The notes beneath the pieces are model-generated. The model was not told the DNA's origin. It did no database searches and was given only the letters and a program-made list of their open reading frames with translations. A stretch of 64,000 nucleotides of DNA. Source: Liolophura sinensis. Taxonomy: Eukaryota; Mollusca; Polyplacophora; Chitonida; Chitonidae. How positions within the stretch are numbered: position 1 is the stretch's first letter; the number at the start of each line of letters is the position of its first letter. The DNA lies in the NCBI RefSeq assembly GCF_032854445.1, contig NC_088300.1, forward strand, positions 60,858,984 through 60,922,983, written 5' to 3'. This document shows positions 6,796 through 59,745 of this stretch, piece after piece. Position numbers and translations under genes: made by a program.

Positions 6796-8524
6796 CAAAA
6801 TGGTAACAGAAGTATCTTGATCAACAGATGGCAATATCAAGAAGTAACAGAAAAGAAAAACACATTTTCTTCAACCACATACATGTTGTGCAATGCCTTT
6901 GTTCTTGTTTTCACATTTGCCTTCTGTTTGTGAAATCTACACTGTGAAACTCTCAACTGGGCATTACAGCTGCCACACTTTGCAGTTATGAAACAAAATC
7001 TTGGCGGGCTAATACCACAGACAACTCTCGTAAGGAGCAGTTAGCTTAAGCGTGTTCTAAAAAGAGTGTGATAATCACATAACTGATTAAAAAAAAAAAC
7101 AAGAACCAACGCATAGTGAAACAACGTTGACTACCACGTTGTATTTAACATGTTCCCTGGAGTTGGTTTATTAATCACGCTCATTCCTGGAGGTCCTTAA
7201 AGTGAGACATCTTTTTTTTTTTTTTTTTTTGACATCATTTTTTTTAGTTTTGGACATCAGCCAGAGTGGTCTTCCCACAATACTCACCATGCACACTGTA
7301 CATATACATTACAAGAAAAGCTAGTGTACTTATTTCACTGACATTGACAACAAAAATAGCAACCAAAAACATGTTTTTACTTGTTCAATGGTAACATGTC
7401 TACATATTCCTTATGTTGGTAACATTAGAATTTGAATTGTCTAATGTCAAATTAATTTTTGCACATCCTGATAATTGAGATCTAAGTGTAATTTATGCAA
7501 GAGCTGAACTTTGTCAACACAATCTTTCAGATACGTCACATAAGCGTCATTTCAGAGTGGCCAAAAAAATGTTTATCCTACTCCATGGGTTAGCAATCCA
7601 AGCAGGGATTCAATTTGACAACATGCATTTCTGTTATCACAGGATAGATGAATGTCCATGACCCTTGAAACCCGAAAGGATATATGGTAGTTCAATCACT
7701 CAATTTGCTTAATTTTCAACAATGGATAAATGCATGAAAACTTGGGTCAAACTCATAACCAATAAAGCATGCAATACCACTGAAGTATCCTTACCTATAA
7801 CAGAAATACAACTCCGCGCAGTTAGCAAATGTCTTCACAAAGTGGCCTAGTCAAATTTGTCACTGGACACCGATTTTTCTGGTTATTGACATGACAGGTG
7901 ATACTGTGCATATATATGTAATACTCTCTTATTAGCCTATTAACTCCTTGTAGCCTATTTTGAAATAAATGTAACAAAAAATCATAACTCCATTTTCATA
8001 ATAAAAAGATATATTACCAAAAAGCAAGCCGGCAAGGTGGCCTCAACTACAGGAATTATCGTTTATGTCGTGATAATGAAAGATTCCTTTGACCTAAAAC
8101 AATACCCTCATCCACTTTTATATTGACTGTAAAACTGCCATAAGATACTCATAGGAAAAACATTATTTCTTAACTATACCAGGACATTTAGCCTCCATTA
8201 AATGATGTGCATGGGTGTAATACTGAAGTCTTTACATTTAAAACATCATTAATAATTCCACATTTAAGAGAGATTTTTTTTTCTCTTTCTCTGCTGGCTT
8301 ACCCAGTACACAAAGACAGAGTTGTGATACTGCAAAAGATACACCATACAAGCTTTTGCTATGAAACAATTTTTCTCAAGTATAATAATGGGAAAGTTAC
8401 TTGTGTTTCTGGCGAACTTATGACAATCAGAAATAACTGGGTGTAACTGAGCATTAAGCTGATCAGGTGATGATTTAATGAAGATCTGTTTACAGACAGT
8501 GGAGCAAGGAAAGAAAATACTAAC
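6796..8524. other. gene-free stretch
   Basis: AT-rich sequence with a poly-T run near 7211-7230. No exon-like frame, no recognised repeat family. Confidence 0.5.
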
Positions 8525-8875
8525 CTTATTCTACATAAACCTGTGCAATACATAGCCTTCATCTACATACACCTGTGCAATACATAGCCTTCATCTACAT
8601 ACACCTGTGCAATACATAGCCTTCATCTACATACACCTGTGCAATACATAGCCTTCATCTACATACACCTGTGCAATACATAGCCTTCATCTACATACAC
8701 CTGTACAATACATAACCTCCATCTACATACACGTGTGGAATATATAATCTTCATCTACATGCACCTGTACAATACATAACCTGCATCTACATACACCTGT
8801 ACAATACATAGCCTTCATCTACATGCACCTGTACAATACATAACCTGCATCTACATGCACCTGTGGAATATACAC
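8525..8875. repeat. 32-bp minisatellite, about 11 copies
   Basis: Units of about 32 bp containing ACACCTGTGCAATACATAG then CCTTCATCTACAT. The first five or six units are nearly identical; later ones diverge (CCTGTACAATACATAACC, GTGGAATATA). The gradient suggests recent expansion at the left end. Confidence 0.95.
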
Positions 8876-24185: not shown

Positions 24186-27100
24186 ATGAAGCTGTATTCA
24201 TTATCTATCAGTTTTCGTTCAGAAGATGGAAAGGTTAATCTTCTCAAAGCTGAACATGATCTGTCTTCGTTTGGTTATTTTCAGAGGTCGAGGTATGTTT
24301 ATAGGATTTATAGGCAGGTAAAACCAGAAGCAGCCTTTTCATACGTGGATAATGTAGTTATTTAATAACCCTTGGGTTCATGATGTCGGCAAACTTTAAG
24401 TGACAAATTTGAATAAATATCCACATCATACATTTAAGATGTACTGGTACCTGTCCTTTAATACAGTGTTAGTTTAGTTTGTTAGAAGGACCCTTGCTTA
24501 CTTAGCAGTCTAATGGCAATATCTTCTACCAGCAGGAATTAATGCTTTTGTTTACTTCGTTAAAGCAATTTCTTCATTGTTGACATTAAAGAATTTTTTA
24601 CAATTAAATCAATAGTTCATTGGAAAGAAAAGAGTAGGCTCTCCATCATTTCCAACCTGTAATACCTCATTAAATTTTTTTTTATGTCATCATATATAAG
24701 AGTTTGTTATGGCTAGTGGAATCTGTTTGCCACTGCATTCCAGCCGTTGTGTTTGATTGAACGCCATCTTTGCAACTATAGCTCATAATATGCCACATGT
24801 GATAAATATCACACATGTATATGGTGGCTGCTTTAACATGATTAACTTGCAGTAGCACACACACCAGTATTTGTTAGCTATCCTGCTATTCACACCAAAT
24901 ATGACAGTTGAACATCTATAGGGTGTTTACCATTTTAAAGAGTGGTAGTGTTTTCAAGATATGAATGTTTTTTGGGTTTTTTTTACAGTGTAAGAGAGTT
25001 TATGGAATTTACCAGTAAAATTTTAGTGGAGAGGACAGCTGTATGTACCCGAGCCTCAGTCAAAGAACAAGGTAAACTGGAACCTATCTGTTCAGGTTCT
25101 GTCAGTTAATTTAACATCAGTTGGTGCACAAATCAGTGATAGCATTTTGTTGACTTTTATTTTATTACAATTATATCTTCACTAGAGAAGATAGTGAAAG
25201 CACTTGTTTTCTACTTCCCAACTGTATATGCTAATATAAAAAGTGTCACACAATTGGATATGGAGTGGGACATCAATGAAATCCATCCATTGTTTTTAAA
25301 CAAATTACACAGATGGTTGTAAAAAGTATGGGATAAGTTCCTGAGTTAGTTTTGTAAAAGTTTTATTGTTTTCATGCCCCAGTTTTTCATTATAAAGTCT
25401 TTATATGGCTGTGTTTTGCAGATTACATGTGTCATGTGTATGTACGGAGTGACTCCCTGTCTGCTGTACTATTGGCTGATCATGAATACCCTCAGAGAGT
25501 TGCTCATACACTGCTTAACAAGGTAACAAATCCAAATTTGCAATAGCTCTGACATCATGCAAAAAGTTCGTTTTATCTTGTGCACTCAGGACTCTAGTTA
25601 AGTGAATGACCTATCTGAAAAGATGCATCATGGATGTTTAATGCTTGACCGACTGACCGATGACCAACTGACCAAATGCCAGAAGTATGGCAGTCATCTA
25701 ACAGTTTGACAGAATGGATGAATCTGTAACTTGTAGGAATGCCAGAAGTAAGCCAGTCGTCTAACAGTTTGACAGAATGGATGAATCTGTAACTTGTAGG
25801 AATGCCAGAAGTAAGCCAGTCATCTAACAGTTTGAAAGAACGGATGAATCTGTAACTTGTAGGAATGCCAGAAGTAAGCCAGTCATCTAACAGTTTGACA
25901 AAATGGATGAATCTGTAACTTGTAGAAAGGCCAGAAGTAAGCCAGTCATCTAACAGTTTGACAGAATGGATGAATCTGTAACTTGTAGGAATGCCAGAAG
26001 TAAGCCAGTCATCTAACAGTTTGAAAGAACGGATGAATCTGTAACTTGTAGGAAGGCCAGAAGTAAGCCAGTCATCTAACAGTTTGACAAAATGGATGAA
26101 TCTGTAACTTGTAGGAACGCCAGAAGTATGCCAGTCATCTTTTAATCGGCGCTCATCACAGTAGAGCTATAATATTATATTGCGGGGGTGACATTAAGCC
26201 AATACCATAGTCATTCATTCTGCTCGGTGCAGATGTGGGAAAGTACGTCAGTGACTTGTCAAAGGTGGACAGTATGCCCTGGGCACTCAAGTATTTTCCG
26301 CCCATTAAAGTGACATCACAGAAGTGAAAAATTCTTGAGTGTTGCATTGAACAACAATCAATCAGTCAATCTGGCTGGTGCCTAAGGTGCCGTCTAAATT
26401 ATTTTTATATTCCTAATAAAGTCAGGAAATTGAGATCTATATTGTGTGCAATTACTTGTTGAGAAAACATGATAAGAATGTCTAGTGTAAATGTTCATCA
26501 AACCCTCTTTGTCCTCCTCTCTGTTTCAGAATTGCACTGTATACATGTAACAGAGAGGAATTTGTTGTATTTAATAGATTCCTGTAGAAACTAATTGGGC
26601 TAGAACAACATTAAACAGCTAGAAACTGGCCTTGCAACCTTCCCTGTCTGTTCATTGTAGTCTTTTTATGGTGTCTTTTCCTCTACAGTTTCAGCCTTTG
26701 AGAGAAAAATTCTGACTTCCTTGAGATGTAATGAAGAATTCTTTGAGAAAACAGCCTAAAGAAAAAAGTGCCTTTCATCCCACGTAAAAAATGTATCTAA
26801 ACAAACATATCTTTTATTTCAATTTTTTTGAAGGTTGGATCATAATATTTGGCATTTAATAGAGAAGTTAATTGGGCATCAAGATGGTTTTATTCTGTTT
26901 TTTTTTTAACAGATTTTAGACGAGTTTTCCAATAAGGTCCCAAAGGGAATATGGTCTACAGCAAAGCCAAGGTGAGGACAGTTCTGCTGGATATTTCTTA
27001 TTAACACAAACTCTGCTTACATAATTACACTAATTCTTCAACTTTTTCAACTGCTTCTGCAACCAACATTTTTAAACATTCTGAGAGAACTATGGGGTGT

Positions 27101-34092: not shown

Positions 34093-34889
34093 TTTGCATT
34101 TAAACAGACCTTGCCCCAAAACAGCCGTTAACAGCGAATAAAATTATTCAAATTATTGTTTTATGAAGGGAGAAATTTCAATAAGGTTTTAAACTTTTGA
34201 AAATTGACTTTTAAATGCTATATATCATAAAGCTGTTGTTTTTATATAGGCCTTATGTTCAAAATTCCAAATGTCTAATGTCATACAAATTTAGTCTAAA
34301 CAAATTTCCCAAACGGAGGTAACTTCTCTGCTATTGGCTCATGTCCGTTTGATCCCGGAAATTTGCAGGGAATCGATCAGCTACTATGGCACACACAACC
34401 TAAGGCATGAATTTTCATAAATTTACACTTTGAAAAACGAAAAGCCGGTCGTAATGTGACGTTAGCGGTTGACTCTTCCGCACATCGTTTTGTCAGCTGT
34501 CATATATCTAAGCAGATGGCCTATTTTGGTACAAATGGGTGAATTACTCAATGAAAAAAGCGGTTATTTTGAAAATTACGTGTCAATGTGCAAACAGATG
34601 AAGAAAATAATACAGAAGGAATGTTTTGAATCTGTATATTCTTATCCGGTCTTTATTTGTAGACCAGTAACAGGTGGCTTCCCGGTACCTGTAATGACTT
34701 TGTCAAGTTGACAATTCGATAAAAAAAATGATTCACAAACAAGAAATGACGAAGACGATCAGGTTATAAAGTCAGAAAGATTAAAATTGATATATACAAA
34801 TTTTGGCTTCTAAGATCGATTCGTCACTCCTAGACATGGAGCACTCAAACGTTATCGAACGTTATAAACAGCCAGAGAAGCGTTTCAGA

Positions 34890-35060
34890 TCGCTTATCGT
34901 CACCAAGGCCCTTTGCAATAGACAGCGGAGAAATCCACAATTTCCATGTCCAAGGCTGGGTTTGAACTCCCACCTCGTTTGGAAGAAAAACATCTTTAAT
35001 AACTCGGCCAAGACCCGCTCCCAGAACAAGTGTATAACCACGCCGTTCAGCAAGAGAAGA
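34890..35060 (-). mobile_element. tRNA-like SINE head, minus strand
   Basis: The reverse complement contains TTGGCCGAGTTATTAAAG (A-box region) and GGTGGGAGTTCAAACCCAGC (B box). A tRNA gene is unlikely because the stems do not pair as a cloverleaf. Confidence 0.5.
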
Positions 35061-35461
35061 ATGAACAGTATGTGTAGTGTTCAAGCAGTTGAGCAGTACC
35101 GCCATGCAGTAAATTTGTTTCCAGACACCGAAGACACGATTACAGGTTATGATTTTAAAATAAAGCTATGATATTCATATACTGCAATGTCCTAAGACTG
35201 ATGGAATTATCAAAATTTGCATTTCGAATCCAACTTTTCCCAAGGTTAAGATACGTCCTGATATCACAGAAATGTCATTAGCTACCTCACATTACAACTA
35301 ACCAGTGAATTTTGAATAATGTCCTTTTAGTAATTCCATAGTTTCAACTTGTTTCAAATGATACTATATATAAATAATTCTCCAATGTGATGTTTCTGAA
35401 AAAAGTTTCACTTAGTAGCAAGTGCGAGAAATATATAATAAACCTCATTTTTAATTAAGGC

Positions 35462-35732
35462 CTCAACGGGGCCTTCGTGGCCAAGAGGTAGCGTCATAGC
35501 GCTGCTCGTGTAATCAAGAGTCTCTCACTAATGCAGTCACTATGAGTTGAAGTCCAGCTCATGCTGGCTACCTCTCCGGTCGTACATGAGAAGATCTGTC
35601 AACAGCCTGAGGATGCATGGCTGTGTATTTCCAAGGGTTCTGCCCGGTTTCCTCCGTCACAACGCTGTCATATACAAGAGAAATATTCTTGAGTACGGCG
35701 TAAAACTCTAATCAAACAAATAAATTAAAGTA
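35462..35732 (+). mobile_element. full-length tRNA-derived SINE, main family
   Basis: Head GGCCTTCGTGGCCAAGAGG (A box) and GAGTTGAAGTCCAGCTC (B box), core CCAAGGGTTCTGCCCGG, tail AAATATTCTTGAGTACGGCG with TAAAACTCTAATC and AATAAATTAAA. Confidence 0.92.
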
Positions 35733-36059
35733 TCTTTATTGTGCGTGAATAAACGTTATCCCAGTCAGGATAAAAAAAATCTGTAAAATCAATTTTAGCA
35801 CTTTGTCGTGTCTTCATAATCATTTGCATATATGTGCTACTGCTATTCTTATCATATATGTGTAATAATACCGTATAAAATTTAAATACAAAAAATGGTT
35901 TATGACTGATGACCTTCATATGCAGTTGATCTCTCATGTCGACTTTGGCGATAATGCAAATATAAGGGAAGAGAACAGTTTTTCACGTTTGCAATTAACC
36001 TAGTTGTCTTGTGAAATCAATCACAAATCCTCGTATCAAAATTTCCGTAGTTGTTGAAC

Positions 36060-36425
36060 TAGGGTGGGTATCCTTTCTCACAGTTTTGTGAACACTCGCG
36101 TGTGGGACAGCTGGTGCAGGCGTCAGGTGAATTCCCTGATCAATGAACAGCCTTTACGTCGCTCTCACAGTCGTATTGTAAGTATCTATATATATATTCA
36201 TATATATATATATCGACATATCTATATATACATATAAACAAGGTTTCTGAAAATTTTAATTTTCAGTGCGAAACAAGAAATTTGGAGGAATTCCCGAAGA
36301 ATAAAAAAAGCACGTCATAGATATTCGAAAGATACGAAATATAAAGGGTTGTAGGCTTGGTGCATCAAGCAATGCAGACTGAACTTACAACTTTATCTGA
36401 TAACAGAGACAATTCTATAAACAAC
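36060..36425 (+). promoter_or_regulatory. candidate promoter and 5' untranslated region of the cytokine-like gene
   Basis: No TATA box can be assigned with confidence. A donor-like GTATT/GTAAGTAT at 36177 and an acceptor-like TTTTCAG at 36266 would frame a short (89-bp) intron in the 5' untranslated region. AGGAATTCCC at 36286-36295 is one base from a Rel/NF-kB consensus on the reverse strand; GTGAATTCCC lies at about 36128. These matches are short and could be chance. Confidence 0.25.
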
Positions 36426-38825
36426 ATGGAGCAGTGGAAGAAGGCCATAATCATGAGTGAGTTTAATGTCTAGTTGGTCGAAGCTTTTACTTGTGGAACT
36501 CTTGGATGTACATTTGTAGAAAACAGCAACGGTTTAATTATTTTTTATGAATTTGAATTTGGTGTTTTAAAGAAAATGTTTTAGAGAGTTGATCAGTTTT
36601 AATTTTTCGTACAAATTTTGGGATAAAACGTCATAATTCTCAACGACTGCTGAGTTGAACTCTTACTGAGCGATGCTCGATACTGATATTAGAAAAATTA
36701 TCTCATATTACGTTTTAGGTATTTTTGACATTCTTCCTTTCAGGAGGAAACGCACATTTCTTTCAACATTTCTAAACTTGAATAAATGAAATAAAAATAG
36801 AAATAACTGCTTTTTTCAAAGACCTCTAGTTTCATAATTTACTTTTAGTTTGCTCTTGCTGCTGCCTAGTATGGACAGCTGTGGAGGGTACGCCAATCAG
36901 AGAGCGTAGAGATGTCAGTCAGCTAACAGGAGTTAGCCTTATAGAACGCCCTTGTCCCGCCAGTGTCCCGCTGGTCCTGAGTGACCAAAGTGGTCCTTAC
37001 GTCCCTCCATACACGGCAGCTCGCTTAGAGAATCTGAAGAACGATGTTAAAACGATGGAAAGCACGTTTGTAAGTAAAGATCGTTTTTTTTTCTAAAAAG
37101 AATGACTCGATGTCAGTAAGCAGCAGTGAAAATAAAGCTTGTATAAAATGAAGTGCTGTCTGTAGTCTGTCAAATAGTTGTATAGACAAAGCTGAGAGAT
37201 TCCATCTGAAGAATATACCCTGAATGTTCCTTGCTATAGAGAGGTATATAACGACACCCTGTAAATGGTATTTTGCATATGAGATGCAGGGATGCAGGAT
37301 ATTCCCTCTTGTTTAAATAAATGATTTTCTACAAAAAAATCTGAATGTCATGGGTATGTAATGTGTGTGAATTATATTACAACGCGGTTAATGGTTCTTC
37401 ATTTAGTTACTATTCTTAATGTCTTATTCTAGTCAACTCGCCTGGGATCTCCTTACATTGTCAACTTGTTCCAAACATACCCTCGGGACATGTTGGGGGT
37501 CATCACCCGATCCATGGGAACAGAGGACTTGGGACATGCCAGAAACTCAACTAGGGTGAGAATTTAGGCAAATTAGGGGAATTAGTTCATTGTCAAAATA
37601 AAAACGAACGTGGTTCTGCTATATGTGCACAACTGATTAATCCATAAACTGGTAGACAATCTGTGTATTTGTTGTTGACGGCGTTTATTTGTGTGTGTGT
37701 CTGCCCATCTCTGTGAGTCAGAAACTTTTTGCAAAAAGTTATTCTAGCATTTGGATGAAAAGTTGGGTCCAACGCCTATGCTGTTTCAGCCAATCCATGA
37801 AATCTACACTGATTTGAATCTGTAACCGGTTCTACGAAATTGTCGGAATGATACTTTACCTTTGCAGGATATAGACACAGATGGGGAGTATAGTATATTT
37901 GTATTGGTTGTTTTGTTTTTGCACAGTGTATGAGGTTTGCACTCAGTGAGTGCCTACTATAGTTGTTTTGTGTTTAGAACATGTTTTATAAATCGTAAAA
38001 GACAGACATTCACAAAATTCTCTATGTCTTGCTACCCTATTTCTTCTAATTTTTGGGACACCTGGTCTGCTCGTTTTAGCCAATATACTTGTAACTGTAG
38101 CAGGAATATTTTGCTTCTTTTTCTCACATTGTTCGACCATCTTATGAACAACATAATCAAATCTTTACTTTTTCAGTAAGCTGGCAAAGAAATGTTATAT
38201 TCTTCTTTCGGCACCAATAATAAATGTCTCAAAATTAGAAGAAGTAGGGTACATTTTGCTTCAAGGCTTTGGGGTCTTGCAGCAAGCTGCGGATGGTCGT
38301 GAGATTCCCTCGGGCTCTGACAGGTTTCCTCCCACCATAATGCTGGCTACAGTCGTATAAATGAAATCAAATCAATAAATAAATAAATCAAAGCTTTGGT
38401 GGTCACATTTTGACCCTACTTAACATAGAAGACTTGGCTTCTCTTCCTTTCAGCGGGCGGAAGTGATCGCCGAGATAAAGCGCTGGCTGCTGGTTTACAC
38501 TGTGTACACTGAATACATTCAGAGGGACGAGCGTTACCTGGTGGATCAATTATACCTGCGCCAGAACGACGCTCTGCTGGACAAGACTGCACAGATAATC
38601 CAGCTTGTGGCCAATATTATCTGCGAAGTTCACCTTACCATCCATGCCAACGGCTTTTCAGACGACTTGGCAATGTACGAGCCTATCAAATTCATTCAGC
38701 ATATGGACAACACGGACTCCGCGAAAGTCTACAGTCGGAACTACGTCATCGCCTACGATTTCGAGAAGTTCATCGATTTTGCAATTGTCTTCTTTGTAGA
38801 CTGGGCTCAGGATGTGATGAAGTAA
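36426..38825 (+). CDS. secreted helical cytokine-like protein (long-chain class I candidate)
   Basis: Exons: 36426-36456, 36849-37069, 37433-37555, 38454-38825. Borders are GT/AG, phases 1, 0, 0, and the product is 248 residues. Residues 1-24 are a signal peptide split by the first intron (MEQWKKAIIM, then ICSCCCLVWTAVEG). The mature chain is almost wholly helical in pattern: A about 65-100 (AARLENLKNDVKTMESTF), B about 126-148 (EIKRWLLVYTVYTEYI), C about 163-190 (LLDKTAQIIQLVANIICEV), D about 226-247 (FEKFIDFAIVFFVDWAQD). It has only two mature cysteines, C46 before helix A and C182 at the end of helix C, and one N-glycosylation site, N122. LIF and CNTF share a four-helix order, and LIF bridges its N-terminal cysteines to the end of helix C. 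A short signal exon ending in phase 1 is also usual in that group. The exon model is strong; the family assignment is inference from pattern. It could instead be an unrelated helical secreted protein. Confidence 0.75.
38268..38392 (+). mobile_element. SINE fragment in intron 3 of the cytokine-like gene
   Basis: Contains CTTGCAGCAAGCTGCGGATG, GATTCCCTCGGGCTCTGAC, CCTCCCACCATAATGCTGGC, then AAATCAATAAATAAATAAA. It ends about 60 bp before the exon 4 acceptor. Confidence 0.85.
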
Positions 38826-43590: not shown

Positions 43591-43706
43591 GTGTATATAC
43601 CTGTAAAGGGAATTTCACAAAAAGGGACTGTTTTCAAAGTTTCAACTGAAAGTACAAGTTGATTATTTTTTTATTCATTTCAGACAGAAGAATTTACCAA
43701 CGAAAA

Positions 43707-46700
43707 ATGTATCCACCACCTGAAGATCAATTTGAATGGATACCAGATGCAGAATTTCCTGATCACGTCAGCATCGCCCTGTTTGTTACAGCTATCATTG
43801 TCATCAGCATTGGAATTGTGGGTAATCTGGGTGTTCTGCTGGTGGTTGCTAGGACACCAGACATGCGCACCCCGATGTACCTTTGTCTTTCAAGTCTTAG
43901 TGTTTCCGATATCTTCGTTCTGTTGATCCTTCCCATAATTCCTTTGACCCGGCTTCTCATAAACATGGAAACAAACCTGGGTGTTGTGATATGTAAGTGG
44001 TTGATATTCTTTTAGGCCAACAAGTATATATTTTGTGACAAGAAAGAAAAATCTACATTGATTACGAGGAAACACTCCGCTGTTTTCTGAACACCATATA
44101 AAAACATTCTTTTCATGTTCAAAATTGTTTGATTTCTTGTTGCGAAAACAAGCACTTGTGATTACTATACATATGCCAAGTCGGGACGGAATGTGACTCA
44201 GTGGTGTAAGGTGCGCGGCTTGCATCTGCTGGCGCAGAAGATGTGGGTCGGTAATCACATTGTTCTTGGAGCTTTGGTGATAATAAGCGATCAACAAAGC
44301 TAAAAGGACCCTTTGCGCAGTCTTATTTTCGTTGAACATAACTTGTATTCCACCAGAATGGCGTTCGTAAATGAGTTTCAAAAGGTCGTTTGTTTATACC
44401 CAGGACATCCTTGGTTCATTCTTTAAAGCTAACCACTGCATGCCGTATATAAATGGAAAATTACTAATTCACATGGGCATTTAGTAAGTCATAATGCAGC
44501 ATGGGGCTGTTTGACAACATAGTAATTTTCTTCATTGCGTGCAGTGGTGTATTGTCCATGCAGTTGTCATGTTGGTGATGGGCTCAAAGGATTATTACAC
44601 TATTACCATTTAGTCAGCTCATGCTACGGATTCCATTATTTAGCCTATTTGATTTGCGAAACTATGGGTCTAGCCGGTGGAACGGAATGGAACGGCCTGA
44701 ACTCCCTCTGTTCATAACAACACATCAGCTCTTGGCGAATGACGCCACAAGTTCGAATTCAACTTCCAAAAGATAGGCTCATGGCTTTACGTCGGCAGGT
44801 TTGTCATGTACTAGGTGGCTTGACGGTGTTGTTTCTACACACAGGCGTACCTGTCAACAAAATCCAGCTTCCGAAGATATGCCTGTGGCATTACCTAGTA
44901 AGTTTGTCAGCCACATGGTAACTTCATGCGGATTCCCTTAAACATTAGTGATTAACGTGACTTAAAGATCTACATTTAAAATACTTCACCATCGTTTGGA
45001 ATTAATACCACAGTCTTGCCTGTTATCAGAGGGAAAAGACACAATCAAATGTAAACAGGCCAACGTTGAACAGGTCAGTGCCGTAAATCGAGCTGTCTAA
45101 AACCTTTCCATTTCCATTTCAACCGTATATCAGTTTGCATAAATTATCTGAGTGCAGAGATGTACTTGGCTGCAAAAGGCTGTGGTTTCCCTCGAGCAAC
45201 CTAATTTGACAGCCATTGTATATGTGAACAGTTTGGAACTGAAGTTAAACCCCAATCAAATGATCTAAGAAGGTAAAAAAAGTACGACATTGGGTTGGAT
45301 TCATGCAAAGAGAAGTCGTCAACAGTACTGTTTTAATGATGACGGAAAGTCACAAGGAAATGTTCTATAGGCGAATGAATTTAATCGGTATCGGAATCGT
45401 GAACCTTGCTAGTTTATAAGCCGTCTGTAATAAAATGTTTGTCTCAGTTAGGCTTTGATCGCAACTGTTCATCTATCCAACGTGGCGATCTAATTTAACA
45501 CGATGAATGTATGACCTCTTGTATTTTTTTTATTTATTTATTTCTTTATTTATTTGTTTGGTGTTTTACGCCGTACTCAAGAATATTTCACTAATACGAC
45601 GGCGGCCAGCATTATGGTGGGAGAAAATCGGGTAGAAGCCGAGGGGAAACCCACGACCATCCGCAGGTTGCAGCCAGACTTTCCCACGAACGGTGGCCTC
45701 TTTTAAGACAAATCGATCAAAATTCGAACAACATAACAAAAAATTCTTGGCAAGTTTTAAATTATCCTGCTACTTTTTAAGAATGTAGACGAGCAGCCGC
45801 AAGAAAACCCTGATTGAGATAAATTGAAAAGGAAATGGATTTCACTGGTTACATGTGACCATTTTACAACTATCACACACTTTCGTCACTGCCTTGGTTT
45901 TACTCTATATGCTGTCGTCTTTTGTACTAGAAGTCACTGTGGAGAACCGCTTTGTTGAATTAACCATGCATGTAATTACCGACGCTGATTTTTATATATT
46001 TTTTTATGTTTATTTATATTTGCAGGTTACATGATGAGTGTCTTCGACAAAAGCTCACTGACATGCTCAGTTCTGATCGTCCTCTTCATCAGTGTGGAGC
46101 GACTCATCGTCGTCTACAGGCCGCTGAGGGCCGGACAATTCATAACCACCAAGAGAACTGCCATAAGTCTCACGATCATCTGGCTCTTCTCCTACGCCGT
46201 CAACGCCGGCTTCATCACCATGACGGAGTATCATCAGAGAGTTATCAATGGAACACATCAAGAAGAGTGTGCTTTTTTCTCCCTTCAGCCTTGGCAAGAC
46301 CCATACTTCACGGCAATGATCTGTATCTTTTTTTTCCTGCCGCTCATCGCTATCATCGTGCTCAACGGCTTCATTATTAAACGCGTGGCCATGGACCCGC
46401 CTTCTGACTCCTCCGCCAGCGAGGGCACCACCGTTGCGCGAAGAGCCAGACGCCAAGCAGTCGTCATGATCTTTATCATTGTTGTTCTCTTCATCGTTTG
46501 CATCGCTCCTTTCCAGGTGCTGGTTATGATTGAGATTTACGGTTCCGATTTACTGGCCCCCTTGACGGAGGTGCAGTGGCAGGCGCTGATTTGGTGCAGC
46601 CGATTCACGACGTACATCAACAGTGCCGCTAACCCCATCGTCTACAACATCGTCTCGTCCAAGTTCCGCGCCGCCATGTTGAAATCCTTGACGTGTGGCA

Positions 46701-46765
46701 AGAATAAAAACACCAATGCTTCGAGAATTGAGTCGGCGTCTCGGTCAACCATATTTACCACTTGA
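43707..46765 (+). CDS. class A peptide GPCR, thyrotropin-releasing-hormone-receptor-like
   Basis: Two coding exons, 43707-43992 and 46026-46765, joined in phase 1 inside the cysteine codon at the start of TM3; 341 residues. Seven membrane segments are visible. Landmarks: N40 (TM1), D68 in SLSVSD (TM2), C96 and C177 (the conserved TM3-loop 2 disulfide), ERL at 120-122 in place of DRY, P257 in TM6, NPIVY at 298-302. The stretch MRTPMYLCLSSLSVSD, the short third loop and NSAANPIVYN...SKFRAA resemble TRH receptor and its relatives (GHSR and neuromedin U groups). The TM6 motif reads CIAP rather than CWxP. The start follows an acceptor at 43683; an extra upstream coding exon is not excluded, as the N-terminus is only about 20 residues. 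The ligand is unknown. AATAAA at 47013 may end the transcript. Confidence 0.88.
44190..44290 (+). mobile_element. tRNA-like SINE head in the GPCR intron
   Basis: GTGACTCAGTGGTGTAAGG resembles an A box and GTGGGTCGGTAATCACATTG a decayed B box, about 45 bp apart. The frames at 44535-44717 and 44739-44921 downstream are short and unrecognised. Confidence 0.45.
45535..45705 (-). mobile_element. SINE (core and tail), well preserved
   Basis: Reverse-strand copy in the GPCR intron: TTTATTTATTTGTTTGGTG, TTTTACGCCGTACTCAAG, ACGACGGCGGCCAGCATTAT, GGTGGGAGAAAATCGGG, AACCCACGACCATCCGCAG, GACTTTCCCACG. It is the clearest example of the family consensus in the window. Confidence 0.93.
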
Positions 46766-58110: not shown

Positions 58111-59745
58111 AGTATGTTACCTTCCATTACGCTCTGAAATAACCTCCGGGATATAATATGTTACGTTCTAAAATAACCTCTGGGATATAACATGTTACGT
58201 TCTAAAATAACCTGTGGAATACAGTATGTTACGTTCTGAAATGACCTGCGGGTTATGATGTGTTACGTTCTGAAATAACCTCTGAGCTATAACATGTTAC
58301 GTTCTCAAATAACCTCTGGGCTATAACATGTTACGTTCTCAAATAGCCCCTGGGGTATGATATGTTACGTGTTGAAATAATCTCTTGGCTATAATTTGCT
58401 ACTTTCTGAAATACCCTTTGGGATATAATATGCTACGTTCTGAAATAACCTGTGGACAATAACATGTTACGTTTTGAAGTAGCTTCTGGGCTCTGATATG
58501 TTACGTTCTGAAATAATCTCTGGGATAGGATATGTTATGTTCTGAAATAACCTGTGGAATACAATATGTTACGTTCTGAAATGACCTATGGGATATAATT
58601 TGTTACGTTCTAAAATAACCTCTGGGATATAATTTGTTACGTTCTGAAATAACCTCAGGACAATAACATGTTACGTTTTGAAGTAGCCTCTGGGCTCTGA
58701 TATGTTACGTTCTGAAATAATCTCTGGGATATAATATGTTATGTTCTGAAAAAACGTCTGGATTATAATATTTACGTTCTGAGAAAGCCCCTGGGATATA
58801 ATATGTTACGTTTTGAAATAGCCTCTGTGATATAATATGTTGCGTTCTGAAATAACCTGTGTGATATAATATGTCACATTATGAAATAACATTTGGGCTA
58901 TAATTTGTTACATTCTGAAATAACCTCTGGGCTATAACATGTTACCTTCTTAAATAGCCCTGGGCTATGATATGTTACATTCTGAAATAATTTCTAGGAT
59001 ATAATATGCTACTTTCTGAAATATCCTTTGGGATATAATATGTTATGTCCTGAAATAACCTCTGTGCTATAATATGTTACGTTCTTAGATAACCTCTGGG
59101 ATATGATATGTTACCTTCTGAAATAACCTCTGGGATATTGTTTGTTACCTTCTGAAATAACCTCTGGGCTATGATAAATTTATGTTACATTCTGATATAA
59201 CCTCAGGGATACAATATGTTACGTTCTGAAATGACCTATGGGATACAATATGTTACGATCTGAAATTATTCTTGAGTACGCCGTAAAACACCAATGAAAT
59301 AAATAAATAAGTAAATAAATAAGAAATAACGTTAGAAATAACCTGTGGGATATAATATGTTACGTTCCGAAATAATCTCTGGGATATGATGTGTTACTTT
59401 CTGAAATAACCTCTGGGATATGATATGTTATGCTCTGAAATAGCCTGTGAGCTATAATATGTTACATTCTGAAATAACCTCTGGGATACACTATGTTACG
59501 TTCTGAATTAACTTCTGGGATATAATATGTTACGTTCTGAAATAACCTCTGGGATATAATATGTCAGGTTCTGAAATAACCTCTGGGATATAATATGTTA
59601 GGTTCTGAAATAACCTATGGGATATAATATATTAGGTTCTGAAATAACCTCTGGGATATAATATGTTAGGTTCTGAAATAACCTCTGGGATATAATATGT
59701 CAGGTTCTGAAATAACCTCTGGGATATAATATGTTACGTTCAGTC
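58111..59745. repeat. 34-bp minisatellite, about 46 copies
   Basis: Units read ATGTTACGTTCTGAAATAAC then CTCTGGGATATAAT. Internal units diverge by a few substitutions; those at 59540-59740 are the most uniform (including ATGTTAGGTTCTGAAATAAC). A SINE tail interrupts it at 59265-59323. To the right, decayed units with ATGTTACGTTCAGCCATG continue to about 60140 at irregular spacing. Confidence 0.95.
59265..59323 (+). mobile_element. SINE tail embedded in the 34-bp array
   Basis: ATTATTCTTGAGTACGCCG, TAAAACACCAATGAAATAA and (AATA)n, flanked on both sides by array units. It is only the tail, so either a 5'-truncated insertion or a conversion product. Confidence 0.9.

What the first reader, a model, noticed from the sequence alone, without database searches (positions are those of the whole stretch)
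36426..38825. A candidate LIF/CNTF-type helical cytokine gene in a lophotrochozoan
Seen: four exons with consistent splice sites give a 248-residue secreted protein with four amphipathic helices, few cysteines and one glycosylation site. Known: long-chain class I cytokines (IL-6, LIF, CNTF) have an up-up-down-down four-helix bundle, very low sequence identity, and a first intron inside the signal peptide; LIF links N-terminal cysteines to the end of helix C. Inference: C46-C182, the helix B pattern (RWLLVYTVYTEYI), helix C (LLDKTAQIIQLVANIICEV) and helix D with an internal Trp (FVDWAQD) match that plan. Molluscs have JAK/STAT parts, but I know of no established gp130-type ligand in them.
Basis: partly seen in the sequence, partly recalled or inferred. 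Interest (0 to 1): 0.85.

Follow-up and report, generated by a model that had tools for sequence, protein, structure and literature searches.

The report
LIF-like helical cytokine in a mollusc
A mollusc genome carries a four-exon gene for a probably secreted protein whose exon plan, motifs and cysteines resemble the vertebrate immune signal LIF, a kind of signal reported so far only from vertebrates; fold and function are still untested.

Summary
The gene is as described: four in-frame exons with GT/AG sites, 248 residues, no second copy found in a 609-Mb genome. That genome holds an FMRFamide precursor that is molluscan by recall. Pfam, NCBIfam and PDB sequences give no relative. Three lines still point to a long-chain class I cytokine of LIF/OSM type: (1) introns in phase 1 (signal peptide), 0 (end of helix A), 0 (before helix B), as recalled for IL-6, G-CSF, GH and EPO; (2) junction 2 reads F|STRLGSPY, like Y|x4-G-x-P-F of LIF, CT-1 and CLCF1; (3) the only two mature cysteines align with LIF C40 and C153, a known disulfide, and the only sequon with LIF N95. 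Against: profile of five LIF-type proteins not significant, FxxK absent, no WSXWS receptor found, no structure prediction possible, anchored tests chosen afterwards. I commit to a gp130-type mollusc cytokine acting through JAK/STAT: 0.7 for a class I cytokine, 0.45 for LIF/OSM type.

The parts
36426..36456 (+). exon 1, residues 1-10 plus one base; start of signal-like segment; ends in phase 1
36849..37069 (+). exon 2: rest of signal-like segment, N-terminal extension with C46, helix A; ends in phase 0 after F84
36899..36910 (+). RERR (residues 28-31), furin-type site
   Evidence: read from the translation; consensus recalled
36953..36955 (+). Cys46, aligned with LIF Cys40 (mature C18)
   Evidence: alignment of the N-terminal part, itself not significant; LIF C40-C153 bond in PMC10022904
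37433..37555 (+). exon 3: AB loop, 41 residues, ends in phase 0 just before helix B
37445..37456 (+). G89-S-P-Y92, equivalent of LIF GEPF (LIF P73 contacts LIFR)
   Evidence: PMC10022904
37544..37552 (+). N122-S-T sequon, aligned with LIF N95-G-T
38454..38825 (+). exon 4: presumed helices B, C and D, and the stop codon
38454..38534 (+). presumed helix B (about 126-152); LLVYTVYTEYIQ against IL-6 [12 protein letters not shown], one residue off in register from junction 3
38622..38624 (+). Cys182 near the end of presumed helix C (NIIC), aligned with LIF C153 (NVLC)
38754..38765 (+). Y226-D-F-E229 at the register of FxxK counted from the helix D Trp (aromatic kept, Lys not)
38802..38804 (+). Trp242 in presumed helix D

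Best explanation
The gene encodes a secreted long-chain class I four-helix cytokine of the gp130 kind, nearest to LIF/OSM. Shown: gene model, intron phases, motif, cysteine and sequon positions. Inferred: signal peptide removal, then furin-type cleavage after RERR31; an up-up-down-down fold; a C46-C182 bond that ties the N-terminal extension to helix C as in LIF and OSM, so that no alpha receptor is needed; one Domeless/gp130-like chain bound by the helix A/C face, a second by the GSPY turn with the aromatic start of helix D (Y226/F228); then JAK and STAT activation, perhaps in haemocyte or wound responses. A STAT gene is present in the same genome. The 0.7 is for a class I cytokine of either the LIF/OSM type (0.45) or a separate lineage (0.25, first rival).
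For: Phases 1-0-0 at the places recalled for IL6, CSF3, GH1 and EPO, AB-loop exon 123 bp against 114, 108, 120 and 87; recalled sizes sum to the coding length in 7 of 7 human genes. Ungapped 27-mers anchored on junction 2 against LIF, CNTF, CT-1, OSM and CLCF1: summed score reached by 1 of 10000 shuffles, rank 1 of 196 candidate positions. [FYW]x4GxP[FYW] in 3 of 5 LIF-type proteins, 0 of 13 others, and in the candidate exactly at the junction. Helix B anchored on junction 3 against IL-6: 1 of 4000 shuffles. Candidate-LIF z 4.6, LIF-OSM 4.6, LIF-CLCF1 4.1, LIF-CNTF 3.8. Part after junction 2 against LIF: 5 of 40000 shuffles. C182 and N122 fall on LIF C153 and N95, C46 on LIF C40.
Against: Five-member profile: -0.6 bits, 1689 of 20000 global and 4397 of 20000 local shuffles as good; four-member profile without LIF 1208 of 3000, while each held-out true member beats 3000 of 3000. 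LIF match weaker with cysteines masked (36 of 3000) and with local shuffles (101 of 40000). Part before junction 2 not significant against any of the five (best 236 of 3000). Gapped anchor test: junction ranks 9, 42, 8, 12 and 10 of 120 for LIF, CNTF, OSM, CT-1 and CLCF1. In the ungapped test the score comes from LIF (20) and CLCF1 (22); CNTF 1, CT-1 -1, OSM -2; G-CSF, GH and EPO do not match at junction 3. FxxK absent. No Pfam, NCBIfam or PDB match. No IL6Ra-bind match, no WSXWS in 8 of 12 gp130-like matches fetched. Unrelated IL11-APOE reach z 4.4 in the same panel. Anchored tests were chosen after seeing the sequence.
Confidence: 0.7

Rival explanations
1. A class I helical cytokine of a separate invertebrate lineage, not specially close to LIF; the LIF-like traits are ancestral to long-chain cytokines or chance. 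(This share is part of the 0.7 above.)
For: Intron before helix B, recalled for IL6, CSF3, GH1 and EPO but not for LIF or CNTF; helix B closest to IL-6; FxxK absent; LIF-type profile not significant.
Against: GxP[FY] turn at the junction and both cysteines on one LIF disulfide; LIF has the highest z of 18 panel proteins under three scoring schemes.
Confidence: 0.25
2. An unrelated secreted helical protein whose resemblance to LIF is chance. This includes a class II (interferon/IL-10-like) protein, a kind reported from oyster (CgIFNLP, PMC9756803, passages).
For: No database match; profile test fails; motif tests made after the fact; leptin and IL-2 also give z 3.1 and 2.3 in one scheme.
Against: Intron plan, junction motif, cysteine pair and sequon agree with one alignment; z to IFNA2 1.2 and IL-10 0.5 (BLOSUM45 local).
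Confidence: 0.22
3. The splice model is wrong in part: exon 4 is real, but exons 1-3 are not joined as drawn.
For: Exon 2 stretch has no GC3 signal (163rd of 218); exon 1 is 31 bases and rests on splice signals.
Against: Four exons join in frame with GT/AG sites; exon and intron GC differ; the exon 2/3 junction falls on the LIF motif.
Confidence: 0.08

Closest known systems
Leukemia inhibitory factor (LIF; Pfam PF01291 LIF_OSM)
   Same: recalled phase-1 intron in the signal peptide and phase-0 intron four residues before GxP[FY]; cysteines of the C40-C153 disulfide; sequon before helix B; z 4.6
   Different: two mature cysteines against six; extra intron before helix B; Y-D-F-E in place of FxxK; RERR site; no Pfam match; 24 identities in 114 aligned positions
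Oncostatin M
   Same: N-terminus to helix-C disulfide C31-C152 (PMC10022904); NIYC against NIIC; Y-x4-G at the end of helix A
   Different: pairwise z only 1.5; OSM has FQRK
CT-1 / CLCF1 / CNTF
   Same: aromatic-x4-G turn (with xPF in CT-1 and CLCF1); Trp in helix D 16 residues after the FxxK Phe, register kept by the candidate's Y226 and W242
   Different: no N-terminus to helix-C disulfide in CNTF or CLCF1; candidate z -0.5, 2.0 and -0.6
Interleukin-6 / G-CSF
   Same: recalled phase-0 intron before helix B; for IL-6 the helix B sequence too
   Different: no GxPF turn; IL-6 and IL-11 have Trp at the site-3 anchor (PMC10022904)
Drosophila Unpaired and oyster CgIFNLP
   Same: invertebrate ligands proposed for cytokine-type receptors (PMC8226699, PMC13203501, PMC9756803)
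   Different: not compared here; their sequences were not at hand; CgIFNLP is described as class II-like

Membership tests
long-chain class I helical cytokines | up-up-down-down four-helix bundle | not testable with these tools
long-chain class I helical cytokines | introns: phase 1 in signal peptide, phase 0 at end of helix A, phase 0 before helix B | tested here: met
   human exon sizes recalled, checked only by their sums
long-chain class I helical cytokines | secreted, with signal peptide | tested here: inconclusive
   hydrophobic segment about 8-21 read; no predictor was run
long-chain class I helical cytokines | cognate CHD/WSXWS receptor | tested here: inconclusive
   PF09240 gave no match, which the tool says does not show absence; 12 fibronectin-like matches to a gp130 fragment, none of the 8 fetched with WSXWS within their 3.2-kb loci
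LIF/OSM/CNTF/CT-1/CLCF1 group | aromatic-x4-G-x-P-aromatic turn after helix A | tested here: met
   LIF, CT-1, CLCF1 and the candidate; OSM and CNTF keep aromatic-x4-G only
LIF/OSM/CNTF/CT-1/CLCF1 group | FxxK at the start of helix D (LIFR site 3) | tested here: not met
   present in 5 of 5 members; no [FYW]xxK anywhere in the candidate; role from PMC10022904
LIF/OSM/CNTF/CT-1/CLCF1 group | profile match | tested here: not met
   no Pfam family at E up to 10; own five-member profile not significant. Human CT-1 also matches no Pfam family at E 0.001
LIF/OSM pair | N-terminal Cys to helix-C Cys tether | tested here: met
   positions align (PMC10022904); the bond itself was not testable

The most novel reading that the evidence does not exclude
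A true LIF/OSM-type cytokine exists in a mollusc and keeps an intron before helix B that LIF lacks, so gp130-type ligands were present before protostomes and deuterostomes split, and the JAK/STAT receptor of molluscs has a recognisable ancestral ligand.
Probability: 0.45. Interest if true: 0.88.

Novelty: new variant of a known kind. Interest (0 to 1): 0.75.

Why it matters
A 2026 survey found IL-6 family cytokines only in vertebrates and IL-6R-like receptors back to molluscs (PMC13203501; abstract, methods, results and part 1 of 2 of the discussion read). Its BLAST cut-offs of 30% identity and E 1e-5 would miss a protein with 24 identities in 114 positions to LIF. A LIF-like ligand in a mollusc would give those receptors a candidate ligand and date the ligand-receptor pair before the bilaterian split. 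The exon plan with the junction motif also offers a way to search other invertebrate genomes where sequence alone fails.

Tried and rejected
Searches of the candidate in Pfam, NCBIfam and PDB sequences: nothing. Human CLCF1, LIF, CNTF and OSM do not find one another in the PDB sequence search at E up to 1 either, so silence says little. Five-member profile: not significant. Leptin looked like a second match (exon 4 z 4.6); set aside because it pairs the candidate's presumed helices B-C with leptin's N-terminal helices. IL-2 (z 2.9, 2.3 and 1.1 in the three schemes) was not followed. Prokaryotic and viral collections, queried with exon 4: no relative. Paralogues in window or genome: none found. 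STAT-type and kappa-B-type sites at 34400-36425: none. Literature for human LIF and CNTF exon positions: none found (passages of PMC4146584), so these stay recalled. A repeat string as taxon marker: no paper holds it. In one search the CLCF1 anchor was one residue off; one search used the right one. Own-genome searches that did not complete: PF00001, PF00489, PF01291, PF14830, PF18379 and a myomodulin pattern.

Full report
Observation. The exons 36426-36456, 36849-37069, 37433-37555 and 38454-38825 on the + strand join in frame with GT/AG introns into 248 residues. The coding signal is strong in exon 4 (first of 218 stop-free stretches by GC3 minus GC2) and absent by that measure in exon 2 (163rd of 218); exons are GC-richer than introns. 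The open length of exon 4 alone proves little (14 stretches of 133 codons or more in the window against 2.85 expected). In the 609-Mb genome of 632 contigs the protein matches only its own exons (the tool scores only its best candidates).

Host. On the window's own contig lies a 409-residue open frame with 18 FMRFG and 3 FLRFG units, led by ALSGDGFLRFGR. By recall this is the molluscan FMRFamide precursor; no database named the organism. A STAT domain passes the Pfam cut-off on two neighbouring stretches of one contig.

Sequence searches. Pfam and PDB at E up to 10 and NCBIfam at E up to 10 return nothing. Human CLCF1, LIF, CNTF and OSM do not find each other in the PDB search at E up to 1, and human CT-1 matches no Pfam family at E 0.001, so the lack of a hit is expected of a distant relative.

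Pairwise tests. In a panel of 18 proteins LIF has the highest z under three scoring schemes (3.9, 5.0, 4.7); leptin comes second in two (3.1, 4.4) and IL-2 in one (2.9). With shuffles of both partners candidate-LIF is 4.6, LIF-OSM 4.6, LIF-CLCF1 4.1, LIF-CNTF 3.8, and candidate against ferritin, myoglobin, ApoE and Bcl-xL 0.8, 1.8, 0.3 and -0.1. Larger sets: 9 of 5000 global and 39 of 5000 local shuffles reach the LIF score with BLOSUM45, 21 and 52 with BLOSUM62. The part after junction 2: 5 and 101 of 40000. Exon 4 alone: 3 of 1000 for LIF and 3 of 1000 for leptin, the latter out of register. With cysteines masked: 36 of 3000. IL11-APOE, unrelated, reach 4.4 in the same panel.

Profile tests go against. 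A five-member profile scores the candidate at -0.6 bits, with 1689 of 20000 global and 4397 of 20000 local shuffles as good; IL-6 and G-CSF score 8.1 and 18.6 bits with it. Four-member profiles give 1208 (no LIF), 4 (no OSM), 0 (no CNTF), 54 (no CT-1) and 278 (no CLCF1) of 3000; each held-out true member beats 3000 of 3000. By sequence the candidate lies further out than any of the five.

Gene architecture. Human exon sizes, recalled and checked only by their sums, put a phase-1 intron in the signal peptide and phase-0 introns at the end of helix A and just before helix B in IL6, CSF3, GH1 and EPO; LIF has the first two, CNTF and leptin the one at the end of helix A (helix limits recalled). 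The candidate has phase 1 after residue 10, phase 0 after F84 and phase 0 after R125, with an AB-loop exon of 123 bp against 114, 108, 120 and 87. It lacks the fourth intron of IL6, CSF3, GH1 and EPO.

Junction 2. LIF reads Y|YTAQGEPF, CT-1 YVQLQGDPF, CLCF1 YLNYLGPPF, CNTF Y|VKHQG, OSM YIRIQG, the candidate F|STRLGSPY; the bar is the recalled intron in LIF and CNTF and the observed one here. The full pattern is in 3 of 5 LIF-type proteins and 0 of 13 others. Anchored without gaps, the 27 residues around the junction score 40 over the five (LIF 20, CLCF1 22, CNTF 1, CT-1 -1, OSM -2), reached by 1 of 10000 shuffles and by none of the other 195 positions. In a gapped version the junction ranks 9, 42, 8, 12 and 10 of 120 for LIF, CNTF, OSM, CT-1 and CLCF1; summed over the five, 0 of 3000 shuffles do as well, but the part before the junction alone is not significant. 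LIF P73, the proline of this turn, contacts LIFR (PMC10022904, passages).

Junction 3. After intron 3 the candidate reads RAEVIAEIKRWLLVYTVYTEYIQ and IL-6 [22 protein letters not shown], one residue apart in register; 1 of 4000 shuffles is as good and the place ranks 4th of 195 30-mers of the candidate; G-CSF, GH and EPO do not match (3819, 1292 and 908 of 4000).

Cysteines and sugar. LIF ties its N-terminal extension to helix C by C34-C156 and C40-C153, OSM by C31-C152, which the authors link to signalling without an alpha receptor (PMC10022904, passages). The candidate's two mature cysteines align with LIF C40 (in a part whose score is not significant, z 0.6) and C153, its sequon with LIF N95.

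Receptor side. FxxK is in 5 of 5 LIF-type proteins, 16 residues before a Trp in CNTF, CT-1 and CLCF1; the candidate has Y226 and E229 at that distance from W242 and no [FYW]xxK. IL-6, IL-11 and IL-27 p28 have Trp as the anchor and bind gp130 there (PMC10022904), so an aromatic anchor is kept and the lysine is not. The IL6Ra-bind family finds nothing in the genome, which the tool says does not show absence. A human gp130 fragment gives 12 fibronectin-type matches at E up to 1; none of the 8 fetched has WSXWS in its locus. PMC13203501 reports IL-6R-like receptors in molluscs.

Prior art. The listings name no LIF- or CNTF-like cytokine of a mollusc. PMC13203501 states that IL-6 family cytokines were found only in vertebrates. 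PMC8226699 (12 of 24 passages) speaks of reports of IL6-like proteins in invertebrates and names Unpaired-3. PMC9756803 (passages) lists mollusc IL-17, MIF, TNF and an oyster interferon-like protein described as class II-like, with no mention of IL-6 or LIF. PMC1963337 (passages) and PMC11847480 (passages) treat receptors and LIF binding. The library is open-access only.

Verdict. I hold it to be a class I cytokine of a mollusc at 0.7, specifically LIF/OSM-type at 0.45. It should not yet be filed as a LIF-family member, since the FxxK and profile tests were not met. Fold, secretion, expression and receptor remain untested.

Noticed in passing
window 43650-44012 and 45989-46762 (+): Exons of a rhodopsin-type GPCR downstream of the cytokine; best solved-structure matches of the second exon are motilin, ghrelin, TRH and neuromedin-U receptors.
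   Followed up: partly
G000:C6:51358450-51358844 (-), L014: FMRFamide precursor with 18 FMRFG and 3 FLRFG units on the same contig as the window; used as host marker.
   Followed up: yes
G000:C1:88911917-88912758 (-), L004 and L005: Two neighbouring STAT_bind matches over the Pfam cut-off, perhaps one STAT gene.
   Followed up: partly
G000:C4:19213475-19310202: Cluster of 6 of the 12 weak fibronectin-type matches to human gp130; no WSXWS in the four fetched.
   Followed up: partly
window 58127-59741, 1140-1968, 25675-26140, 8516-8870: Long tandem arrays with units of 34, 21, 63 and 32 bases.
   Followed up: no
window 35620-35725 and 38300-38385: Two stretches that look alike by eye (GTTTCCTCC... 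and ...AATCAAA(T/C)AAATAAA), the first with GAGTACGGCGTAAAAC; perhaps one dispersed repeat. No paper in the library holds the strings searched.
   Followed up: partly
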